The notes beneath the pieces are model-generated. The model searched no databases and was not told the DNA's origin. It saw only the letters and a list, made by a program, of their open reading frames with translations. The position numbers and the translations under genes were made by a program. A DNA stretch of 64,000 bases from Bacteroidales bacterium (GTDB taxonomy: Bacteria; Bacteroidota; Bacteroidia; Bacteroidales; Marinilabiliaceae), in the NCBI GenBank assembly GCA_024401335.1, contig JAKSLH010000001.1, forward strand, positions 62,001 through 126,000. Reading direction: 5' to 3'. Positions 39,328-41,970 of this stretch are shown here, piece by piece (the stretch's first letter is position 1; the number at the start of each line of letters is the position of its first letter).

Positions 39328-39368
39328 TAAAAAAAGAGAGAGATGGAAAAACCTTCCATCTCTCTCTT
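39328..39368 (-). terminator. Terminator of the PdxA-like operon
   Basis: On the minus strand a 14-bp stem (39334-39347 with 39355-39368) with a 7-base loop, followed by a T run. Confidence 0.85.
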
Positions 39369-39389: not shown

Positions 39390-40385
39390 CTATGCGTTCT
39401 TTTCTGTCTCGTTGTGAGAGCGAGTCTGCATAGGGTTGGCAGATATCTCCTTGTTTATCTTGCGGTTTCTGAATGTGTTGATGGCAAGATAAAGGGCGTT
39501 GTTAAACGACTCGCATGAGGCCATGTCTTGTCCTGCCTTCTCATATTCCGGACCGTGAGCTGTTCTTGTCTCAATCTGGTCGTTACCTATTGTGAGCGTT
39601 GCTCCACTCTCGTAGGCAAGAGCCTTGAAAGGTGCTATGCCCTGGTCAGAATACATGGCGAGAATGGCGTCAAACTTGAATGCTGCGTCACTACCAAAAA
39701 GGGCGTCGGCAGAATATGGACCCATGGCGTAGATGTTTTCTGCACTTACCTCTTCGATGGCTGGTGTGATGATGTTCTGCTCCTCTTCGCCCATCTTAGG
39801 GTTGAGACTCAAAACGGCTATTCTAGGACGACGTATTGTGAAGTCGTTCTTGAGCGACTTGTCAAGTGTGCGTAATGCCGATGTGATACGCTCCTTGGTG
39901 ATGTATTGAGCGACGTTGTTGATGGATACGTTGTCGGCTACTACACATACTCTCAAGTTGTCTTTCACATATAGCTGCAGCCCCTCTGGCTTGTTAGGGT
40001 CCGATACGTTCATAGGAGCACATACGAGAACGTCAATCTTGCCGTTCCTTAAGTCCTGACGTGCTGCCTTGAGGGCCTCGAGAGCTGCCTCGTCGGCAAA
40101 CTGAGATGTCTTGCCCAATTCTACATGGATGTTGTCGTCGGCACATGTCACAATATTGGCACGCTTATTATGAGCCTCCGATGCCTCGCGTATGTTGTTG
40201 AGGCTGAAATTCTGTATGTTGAGAGCTTTGCGATGGTATGCGGCAGCCTTTGGCGAACCATAGATGATAGGTACGAAGTTGTCGTATGCCTCTGGCTCTG
40301 CCAAGGCTTTTAATATTAGTTCGAAACCTATGCCGTTAACGTCTCCCTGCGCTATACCTACTCGTATTTTCTGTTCTTCTTCCAT
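39390..40385 (-). CDS. PdxA-like protein lacking the metal-binding histidines
   Basis: 331 residues, clearly homologous to 4-hydroxythreonine-4-phosphate dehydrogenase of vitamin B6 synthesis (IRVGIAQGD, PIIYGSPKAAAYHRKAL, SLNPKMGEEE, YSDQGIAPFKAL). The three histidines that bind the catalytic metal in E. coli PdxA (positions 166, 211 and 266) align with Asn152, Lys197 and Ser246. The Gly-His-Thr-Glu segment before the first is missing, with a deletion of about 25-30 residues near residue 130, and the DHG loop is altered (AHG at 276-278). I therefore do not expect normal PdxA activity. The frame is intact, so this is a divergent paralogue rather than a pseudogene by stop codons. It follows a DUF4837 lipoprotein gene by 15 bases. 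Confidence 0.85.
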   Translation of the reverse strand: MEEEQKIRVGIAQGDVNGIGFELILKALAEPEAYDNFVPIIYGSPKAAAYHRKALNIQNFSLNNIREASEAHNKRANIVTCADDNIHVELGKTSQFADEAALEALKAARQDLRNGKIDVLVCAPMNVSDPNKPEGLQLYVKDNLRVCVVADNVSINNVAQYITKERITSALRTLDKSLKNDFTIRRPRIAVLSLNPKMGEEEQNIITPAIEEVSAENIYAMGPYSADALFGSDAAFKFDAILAMYSDQGIAPFKALAYESGATLTIGNDQIETRTAHGPEYEKAGQDMASCESFNNALYLAINTFRNRKINKEISANPMQTRSHNETEKNA

Positions 40386-40400
40386 ATTTTTGATATGTCT

Positions 40401-41420
40401 TTATTTCTCGTTTATCTTCATTGTATACATTATACTCTCTAGCTGACGTATGAGGTTGCGTTTCTTGTCTCGGCTAGGGTAATATACAAATCCGTCGGTT
40501 ACTATTATTCTATTGTTTATCGTGTCATGATGTGCCCTGAGGATGAATGGACCACCCATTGCATAGCCTTCCATGCGCCATAGACCTCTCAACTCGGCTA
40601 CTTCCATGCCTCTGTATTTGCCGCTCTTATAGAGTGTCTCGTCTAGACCGAAACGTACCTCAGTACACATGAACGAGCCGTCAGGTCCCTCGATGTTCTC
40701 TCTCAATAGCGAGTCGCGCTTGTTGAGTATATATGGCATGGAGAGCGAGCTTTCACCTACGTATGGGAAGTCATACGTGAGGAGGTTCACATTCGACTCA
40801 TCCGTGTCTATCCTTATCCACGACATGTCCTCCTTGTTCTTCGGATTGCATTTCGTGAATGTGTTTGGTATGATGATGTCCATGCCCCATTTCTCGGATA
40901 GTTCGCTCTGGATGGCAAAATGCTGAATACGCTTGTTGTAGGCTATCATTCTGTCTCTTTCTGACTTAGACAGGTAACTTACTACTTTGATGTGGTTGCG
41001 CTCCACTAGCTTAAGTAATGATGCCTTTGATTTGGCTTTTATAGAGATATACGCCTGCGGACGGGCCCACATGTCATCAAAGCACATGAGTGTGTCTTTG
41101 CTGATGGTGTCGGCTACTACAACGTCTATGATGTTTCTAAACTTTGCCATCGTCTCGTTGAAATATCCGTGTGGTACCGTCTGAACATCAAAGATAGGTT
41201 CTGCCGCTGCCAAACCCAAGTAGTTGTCGTTAAGCATGGCTGTAATATATCTTCCTGCTGTGTCTGCCTTTATGTCGTCGTTGATGATGACGAGAACTTC
41301 GCCGTTTTTGCCGGTGACGCTCGACTTGAATACTTCGCCATTGCCCGATTTAGATTCGCATGAGCAAAGAATCGCTATTATCGCGATCTGGCTTAGGATG
41401 ATTGGAATGTACTTTTTCAT
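40401..41420 (-). CDS. DUF4837-family lipoprotein
   Basis: 339 residues from the ATG at 41420; the longer frame from 41489 would overlap the upstream vsr gene and add a non-signal N-terminus. The N-terminus is a lipoprotein signal (hydrophobic SQIAIIAILC then SC). The body (NGEVLVIINDD, DETLYKSGKYRGMEVAELRGLWRMEG in shortened form, FVYYPSRDKKRNLIRQLESI) matches the DUF4837 family of Bacteroidetes envelope proteins, whose role is unknown. Upstream gene of the PdxA-like protein in a two-gene operon. Confidence 0.8.
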   Translation of the reverse strand: MKKYIPIILSQIAIIAILCSCESKSGNGEVFKSSVTGKNGEVLVIINDDIKADTAGRYITAMLNDNYLGLAAAEPIFDVQTVPHGYFNETMAKFRNIIDVVVADTISKDTLMCFDDMWARPQAYISIKAKSKASLLKLVERNHIKVVSYLSKSERDRMIAYNKRIQHFAIQSELSEKWGMDIIIPNTFTKCNPKNKEDMSWIRIDTDESNVNLLTYDFPYVGESSLSMPYILNKRDSLLRENIEGPDGSFMCTEVRFGLDETLYKSGKYRGMEVAELRGLWRMEGYAMGGPFILRAHHDTINNRIIVTDGFVYYPSRDKKRNLIRQLESIMYTMKINEK

Positions 41421-41472
41421 GGCGATTTTTTTTTTTGATGAAAGCAAATTTACAATAACAAAACTTATTTTC

Positions 41473-41970
41473 CTATTCTTCCGCTGCATATTTCATTGGC
41501 TCATCGTCTGTAGAATAGGCTTTTATAGGCTTGGCACCCATGTTGATCAGCATGAGATGGTTGAGCGTATAAAGCAGACTGTCGAGGTGCTTCTGTCTGT
41601 TCTTCGACGTGAGCTGGCATTCCCATAGCCTTATGACATGCCATCCCATCTTCTTGAGCTGACTATATGTCTTCTCGTCTCTCTCTTTGTTGCGCGTTAT
41701 CTTGTCCTGCCAGAACTGGGTGTTGGTCTTCGGCAATACGTAGAGGCTGCAGTCGCTGTGACCATGCCAGAAGCATCCGTTGACAAAGATGACTGTCCTG
41801 TATTTGCGCATGACGATGTCGGGCGTGCCAGGCAACCGCTTGACGTGTATGCGAAACCGGTAGCCGCTGGCATGCAGGAAGCGTCTGACTATCAGTTCGG
41901 GCTTCGTGTTCTTGCCTCTGATATGACTCATGCATATATGCCGTTGCTGAGGTGTCAGCTTGTCTGCCAT
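41473..41970 (-). CDS. vsr: Very-short-patch (Vsr) mismatch endonuclease
   Basis: 165 residues. Vsr nicks next to T:G mismatches produced by deamination of 5-methylcytosine. The fold and catalytic residues are readable: GTPDIV with Asp51, and VNGCFWHGH with His69 and His71, numbered as in E. coli Vsr; position 64 is Asn where E. coli has His. HIRGKNTKPE near the N-terminus and WHVIRLWECQL are also characteristic. There is no DNA cytosine methyltransferase in this window, which is unusual because vsr normally sits beside one. It directly follows leuS, after that gene's terminator. Confidence 0.92.
   Translation of the reverse strand: MADKLTPQQRHICMSHIRGKNTKPELIVRRFLHASGYRFRIHVKRLPGTPDIVMRKYRTVIFVNGCFWHGHSDCSLYVLPKTNTQFWQDKITRNKERDEKTYSQLKKMGWHVIRLWECQLTSKNRQKHLDSLLYTLNHLMLINMGAKPIKAYSTDDEPMKYAAEE

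What the first reader, a model, noticed from the sequence alone, without database searches (positions are those of the whole stretch)
39390..40385. Degenerate PdxA paralogue with all three metal ligands lost
His to Asn152, Lys197 and Ser246, loss of the Gly-His-Thr-Glu loop with a ~25-30 residue deletion, yet an intact frame and good overall similarity to PdxA. This points to a new function (binding, regulation, or a different dehydrogenase chemistry) or loss of B6 synthesis with the gene retained in an operon with a DUF4837 lipoprotein.
Basis: partly seen in the sequence, partly recalled or inferred. Interest (0 to 1): 0.7.

Follow-up and report, generated by a model that had tools for sequence, protein, structure and literature searches.

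The report
Dead vitamin-B6 enzyme kept by selection
A gut bacterium seems to have lost the usual way to make vitamin B6 but still carries, under strong natural selection, one of the pathway's enzymes with its active site destroyed; the same thing is seen in several related families, which suggests that this protein has a second, unknown job.

Summary

The gene is not decaying: dN/dS = 1 is rejected in every pair tested. Constraint has left the catalytic segments but stayed at residues 7-95 and in the C-terminal helix. It is the last gene before a terminator-like stem, so polarity does not explain its survival.

It is not unique. In a 393-genome survey of the order, PdxA without any metal ligand is seen in seven families including this one (one of them on a single very diverged sequence), in different gene neighbourhoods. 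Best reading: a pseudoenzyme keeping a non-catalytic binding or regulatory role that ordinary Bacteroidales PdxA probably also has. The partner is unknown.

The parts
39390..40385 (-). PdxA-family pseudoenzyme CDS (331 aa)
   Evidence: only PdxA found in the genome, active site lost, open frame
39930..39932 (-). codon of N152 (E. coli metal ligand H166)
39795..39797 (-). codon of K197 (E. coli metal ligand H211); a 6-residue deletion lies between residues 196 and 197
39648..39650 (-). codon of S246 (E. coli metal ligand H266)
39987..39992 (-). codons 132-133, the junction where the 18-residue His-Thr (GHTE) loop is missing
39597..39599 (-). codon of T263 (E. coli substrate residue N283)
39570..39572 (-). 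codon of E272 (E. coli substrate residue R292)
40206..40367 (-). codons 7-60: beta1-alpha1 (GIAQGDVNGIG) and beta2-alpha2 (YGSPKAAAYHRK), a part under strong retained constraint in the altered lineages; candidate functional surface
40401..41489 (-). DUF4837 gene (lipoprotein by eye), 15 bases upstream of pdxA; usual neighbour in this genus and in many other Bacteroidales loci fetched
   Evidence: PF16125 1.1e-73; 13 of 15 genus loci
39334..39368 (-). terminator-like stem (16 pairs) followed by a T run, just after the pdxA stop: pdxA looks like the last gene of its unit
   Evidence: consensus scan

Best explanation
The gene encodes a catalytically dead PdxA (pseudoenzyme). Shown: the residues that bind the metal and the substrate are lost; the partner enzyme PdxJ was not found; the protein is predicted to keep the PdxA fold; it evolves under purifying selection after the loop and H166 were lost; and similar states recur in other Bacteroidales families. 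Inferred: loss of activity (not assayed), and that the protein is kept for a non-catalytic job, most likely as a scaffold or regulatory partner that binds another protein (or a nucleotide-type ligand) through its N-terminal part (the GDxNG loop, the YGSPKxxxYHRK helix) and its C-terminal helix. Further inferred: ordinary, active Bacteroidales PdxA already does this job alongside its B6 step, so lineages that obtain B6 by salvage or by PdxST can lose the active site but not the protein. The binding partner is unknown.
Against: No partner, ligand or phenotype is known. G008 has a degraded PdxA yet an intact-looking PdxJ (long branch, possibly acquired or a contaminant). Of the 29 low scorers 6 keep all three metal histidines (f99: 4 of 5; f4: G396, G271) and 3 could not be judged, so some cases may be altered enzymes and not dead ones; G396 and G271 are inside several of my altered sets. 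f52 shows no constraint shift (1.03). A clade of f1 and f52 altered rows together is not formally rejected (p 0.09), and the placement of most other altered lineages is poorly resolved. pdxJ could not be looked up outside the family. Retained residues may partly reflect folding and dimer constraints only. G000, G009 and G014 are 81-85% complete, so single absences are weak.
Confidence: 0.6

Rival explanations
1. Neofunctionalised enzyme: the protein catalyses a different, metal-independent reaction in the same cleft.
For: The fold is predicted intact; K254 (E. coli K274), N195, D239 and Q248 remain. In family f99 the ligands are kept in 4 of 5 rows while H136 is C or Y and R292 is Y in those four, which looks like a changed substrate.
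Against: In the window's genus the cleft segments are the fastest-evolving part of the protein (identity 0.23-0.52 for the loop, H166 strand, H211 loop and R292 region, against 0.73-0.77 in residues 7-95); a new active site should be conserved. The replacements differ among species (H211: K, E, gap, T, H; H266: S, Y, H, H, G).
Confidence: 0.17
2. Lineage-specific co-option: after B6 loss each lineage reused PdxA separately, for example as a regulator of B6 salvage or of the pyridoxamine kinase.
For: PdxK-like kinases occur in the six genus members whose PdxA is altered in any way (G006 included) and not clearly in the other nine.
Against: The kinases of G005 and G006 are only 30% and 28% identical to that of G000, so one shared partner is unlikely; residues 29-60 stay conserved (0.73-0.84) in all seven altered sets, which suggests one shared ancestral role.
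Confidence: 0.13
3. Relic: a pseudogene in slow decay that has not yet acquired stop codons.
For: Loss of the active site after loss of pdxJ is what decay would start with.
Against: dN/dS = 1 rejected in all pairs tested; open frames in all five altered genus members although synonymous sites are near or at saturation; core and C-terminus conserved.
Confidence: 0.04
4. Still a PdxA enzyme with residual or heteromeric activity.
For: Above the Pfam cut-off; automatic annotation could well call it PdxA.
Against: Below the NCBIfam equivalog cut-off (200.5 against 290.35); no metal ligand, no H136/T137, N283 or R292; no second PdxA found for a heterodimer; no PdxJ found to use the product.
Confidence: 0.03

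Closest known systems
PdxA, 4-hydroxythreonine-4-phosphate dehydrogenase (PF04166, TIGR00557; E. coli 1ptm)
   Same: Homology over nearly the whole length, predicted fold, synteny with pdxA of relatives
   Different: No metal ligands, no equivalents of H136/T137/N283/R292, no PdxJ found, below the equivalog cut-off
D-threonate 4-phosphate dehydrogenase and terephthalate cis-dihydrodiol dehydrogenase (PdxA-superfamily enzymes with other substrates)
   Different: That they keep the metal site is recalled; score to NF002891 is 99.8 against a cut-off of 583
Regulatory beta/gamma subunits of NAD-isocitrate dehydrogenase (IDH3) and the PTA domain of malic enzyme MaeB: members of the wider fold (regulatory roles recalled; for IDH3 a listing with titles and abstract starts was seen)
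   Different: They act inside a complex with a catalytic partner; here no catalytic PdxA was found
PDX1.2 of Arabidopsis, a B6 pseudoenzyme (seen only as a title in the reference list of PMC6071262)
   Same: A catalytically dead protein of B6 synthesis that is kept
   Different: Unrelated family (PdxS type, recalled); its title says it boosts B6 synthesis; here the pathway itself seems gone

Membership tests
PdxA enzyme (4-hydroxythreonine-4-phosphate dehydrogenase) | Match to the family profile PF04166 above cut-off | tested here: met
   219 bits against 27
PdxA enzyme (4-hydroxythreonine-4-phosphate dehydrogenase) | Above the equivalog cut-off TIGR00557 | tested here: not met
   200.5 against 290.35 bits
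PdxA enzyme (4-hydroxythreonine-4-phosphate dehydrogenase) | Three metal-binding histidines (E. coli H166, H211, H266; role recalled) | tested here: not met
   N152, K197, S246
PdxA enzyme (4-hydroxythreonine-4-phosphate dehydrogenase) | Substrate residues H136/T137, N283, R292 (roles recalled) | tested here: not met
   Loop deleted; T263; E272. K274 is kept as K254
PdxA enzyme (4-hydroxythreonine-4-phosphate dehydrogenase) | PdxA fold | tested here: met
PdxA enzyme (4-hydroxythreonine-4-phosphate dehydrogenase) | Works with PdxJ in the same genome | tested here: not met
   No PdxJ found in G000 (84.6% complete) nor in G009, G014
PdxA enzyme (4-hydroxythreonine-4-phosphate dehydrogenase) | Catalytic activity | not testable with these tools
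   Needs an assay
Pseudoenzyme | Homologue of an enzyme with key catalytic residues lost | tested here: met
Pseudoenzyme | Retained by purifying selection after that loss | tested here: met
   shared deletion in G000, G009, G014
Pseudoenzyme | Demonstrated non-catalytic function | not testable with these tools
   No partner known
D-threonate 4-phosphate dehydrogenase | Above cut-off of NF002891 | tested here: not met
   99.8 against 583 bits

The most novel reading that the evidence does not exclude
PdxA of Bacteroidales has an ancestral second function that does not need its active site and is close to indispensable. When a lineage obtains vitamin B6 another way the catalytic site erodes while the protein stays, and this has happened repeatedly, in up to seven or more families, possibly including genomes of about 1 Mb that still carry a barely recognisable PdxA.
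Probability: 0.5. Interest if true: 0.85.

Novelty: new variant of a known kind. Interest (0 to 1): 0.68.

Why it matters
If true, a textbook biosynthetic enzyme has a hidden second job across a major order of gut bacteria, and nature has already made separation-of-function alleles in several families. It also warns that annotation by PdxA presence can overcall B6 synthesis. And it gives a direct experiment: compare loss of pdxA with loss of pdxJ when B6 is supplied.

Tried and rejected
Assembly error: rejected, because MAGs G009 and G014 share the deletion. Paralogue: rejected, only one PdxA found in G000. Operon polarity as the reason for retention: rejected, because pdxA is last before a terminator-like stem and DUF4837 is directly upstream in only 2 of the 29 low-scoring loci (0.7-1.4 kb of upstream DNA held); the other neighbours were named by eye only. 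Neutral decay: rejected. IQ-TREE codon fits gave no neutral comparison and one search failed; a pairwise GY94 maximum-likelihood script replaced them. dS is saturated in many pairs, so omega there is not to be quoted; the likelihood ratios are. LeuRS as species tree: it conflicts with the ribosomal tree (G000 had only 992 residues in it, G010 none) and was not used. The alignment was wrong (strand), one search lacked three genomes; both were superseded.

Sets used. One search aligned 124 rows. The 76 'canonical' rows are those with H136, three ligands and R292 and include 5 genomes twice (as G and as L rows). Its 28 'altered' rows were chosen by me: none keeps R292, two (G396, G271) keep all three ligands. 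Left out of both: the 5 f99 rows, G209, G394 (truncated), G155 and G377 (too diverged to align safely), duplicates L044, L045, L046, L049, and G006, L063, L072 (only H136 changed) and L109, L110, L114, L122 (only H266 changed). The 29 genomes were picked by eye as the low scorers. Of these 29: all three ligands lost in 15, one or two in 5, all kept in 6, not judged in 3 (G394, G155, G377); the mechanical count, gaps counted as lost, is 17, 6 and 6. In one search the f16 set leaves out G192 and the f4 set G073 and G184. In one search one f5 pair includes L112, which is placed with f5 by the tree only. Three f99 pairs (2dlnL 263-367) are not in the count of 15. The genus association of pdxJ loss with changed PdxA (5 of 5 against 1 of 10, G006 counted as changed; Fisher p 0.002) ignores shared ancestry.

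Literature. P. gingivalis pdxA is listed among essential genes of a transposon screen (PMC3547785, one passage; pdxJ not seen). The main text of the B. fragilis screen holds no word beginning with pdx or pyridox (PMC4072883). The searches (listings; passages of PMC3547785, PMC10470040, PMC4403557, PMC6593275, PMC6232779 and PMC6071262 read with find; the find in PMC4072883 gave none) showed no paper on a PdxA pseudoenzyme or second function; 'DUF4837' finds none. Foldseek against the PDB was not run.

Full report
What is there. The window lies in G000, contig 1. The ORF 39390..40385 on the minus strand encodes 331 residues, matches PdxA (PF04166, 1.1e-64) and is the only PdxA found in this 84.6% complete genome. 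It lies 15 bases after a DUF4837 gene, the neighbour seen in 13 of 15 genus loci, and just before a terminator-like stem. It is therefore the orthologue of pdxA and looks like the last gene of its unit.

Active site. Aligned with its genus and, through, with E. coli PdxA, the metal ligands H166, H211 and H266 are N152, K197 and S246. The H136/T137 loop is deleted (18 residues), 6 more residues are missing at the H211 loop, N283 is T263 and R292 is E272. Roles of the E. coli residues are recalled. In the genus, 10 of 15 genomes keep the three ligands and R292. H166 and R292 are changed in the other five (G000, G005, G008, G009, G014); all three ligands are gone in G000 and G014, two in each of G005, G008 and G009. 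Of the ten, G006 has GQTE for GHTE.

Pathway. PdxJ is present in 10 of 15 genus genomes; it was not found in G000, G005, G006, G009, G014, the only 5 of 71 in the family. PdxK-like kinases are found in those five and in G008; the other nine have only ThiD-like partial hits or none (whole ORFs of G009, G014, G008 66-76% identical to that of G000, those of G005 and G006 30% and 28%). NCBIfam's best name for the kinases of G000 and G005 is pyridoxamine kinase (228 and 311 bits; cut-off 231); those of the other four were not scanned. PdxS occurs only in G006 and G014 of 15, next to PdxT and a ThiD-AraC fusion (identified by profile in G014; by similarity in G006). No PdxH was above cut-off in any of the 15, four had weak hits. 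G008 keeps an intact-looking PdxJ on a long branch. So in the window's lineage the DXP-dependent route seems gone and B6 comes from salvage or, in G014, PdxST.

Not decaying. For the six pairs among G000, G009, G014 and G008, dN/dS = 1 is rejected with 2dlnL of 164 to 311; the DUF4837 neighbour gives 239 to 414. G000, G009 and G014 share the loop deletion and the VCAPMN sequence before it, so their divergence follows the loss. Among the five altered genus proteins, identity in the catalytic segments is 0.23-0.69, against 0.74-0.98 among seven active relatives; residues 29-60, 61-95, 291-316 and 317-331 are instead more alike among altered proteins (0.73, 0.76, 0.63, 0.69) than among active ones (0.58, 0.64, 0.56, 0.57), although the altered proteins are less alike overall (0.58 against 0.70).

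Recurrence. Of 393 Bacteroidales genomes, 383 have PdxA (353 of 359 good-quality ones). I picked 29 low scorers by eye and read their residues: all three metal ligands lost in 15, one or two in 5, all kept in 6, not judged in 3. Families with at least one member lacking all three, besides the window's f1, are f4, f5, f16, f52, f86 and f104; f104 rests on one very diverged sequence (G331, E 2.4e-23). Named examples are L112 (horse-faeces MAG, all three lost), L118 (Bacteroidales MAG Gx481_bin123, all three lost) and L074 (Sanguibacteroides massiliensis, two lost). Fifteen pairs of altered proteins from f16, f5, f94, f52, f86 and f4 reject dN/dS = 1 (2dlnL 159-426); some f4 members among them keep their ligands. 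Gene neighbours differ between these lineages (read by eye).

Independence. One clade of all 28 altered rows is rejected (AU p 1.7e-44, log-likelihood 244 lower); one clade of the f1 and f52 altered rows is not formally rejected (p 0.09, 46.6 lower) (quick tree). In f52, altered G121 and G360 sit beside G297 and G416 of the same genus, which carry the full HHHHR set. f5, f86, f94 and f104 also hold genomes with ordinary PdxA scores, whose residues I could not fetch. Altered rows of f4, f5, f16, f86, f94 and f104 lie together with f99 in a poorly resolved part of the tree, where long-branch attraction is likely. So the exact number of losses is uncertain. In the genus, the ribosomal tree puts G000, G008, G009 and G014 on one side of a fully supported branch and G005 with G001 and G004 (72), so G005 may be a separate case.

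Where the retained function may lie. The ratio of conservation in catalytic to non-catalytic segments is 1.32 and 1.12 in two canonical sets, 0.60-0.89 in six altered sets and 1.03 in f52. Residues 29-60 stay conserved (0.73-0.84) in all seven altered sets. In the 76 rows of the tree set, N17 is kept in 75 (1 gap), K46 in 75, K53 in 73, D181 in 76, R308 in 75. N17 and D181 are not shared by E. coli PdxA in the alignment (A and K there), which suggests constraints particular to this group and away from the metal.

Limits. No partner, no assay, no PdxJ data outside the family, MAG incompleteness (G000 84.6%, G009 85%, G014 81%), and some altered lineages (f99, part of f4) that may be changed enzymes and not dead ones.

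Noticed in passing
   Followed up: partly
L176 (G155) and L177 (G377): Genomes of about 1.2 and 1.0 Mb, rated 99% complete, still hold an open frame with a faint PdxA match (E 3.7e-11 and 1.2e-4, the latter under the family cut-off).
   Followed up: no
L192 (G014) and L193 (G006): PdxS-PdxT pair next to a ThiD-like kinase fused to an AraC-type domain: replacement of the DXP route by the R5P route inside the genus.
   Followed up: partly
G008 contig 15, L148 and L023: Intact-looking PdxJ on a long branch (0.83) in a genome whose PdxA is degraded: acquired gene or contaminant contig.
   Followed up: partly
genus g1 (15 genomes): No PdxH above the TIGR00558 cut-off in any of 15, including those with PdxA and PdxJ; weak hits in four. 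The PNP oxidase step may be done by another protein.
   Followed up: no
L109, L110, L114, L122: PdxA with H266 changed to Y and the other four checked residues canonical: a possible early or tolerated step.
   Followed up: no
window 41473-41970: Vsr-like very-short-patch endonuclease ORF (name by eye) between DUF4837 and leuS; it overlaps the longest DUF4837 ORF by 17 bases, so the true DUF4837 start is probably further in, at the lipoprotein signal.
   Followed up: no
genus g1, leuS (L124-L137): The LeuRS tree conflicts with the ribosomal-protein tree, suggesting transfer of leuS, the neighbour of this locus, within the genus.
   Followed up: no
family f104, genomes G173, G262, G389 against G331: Three members show two PdxA matches each while G331 has a single very degraded one: perhaps a duplication that separated two functions, or split hits.
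   Followed up: no
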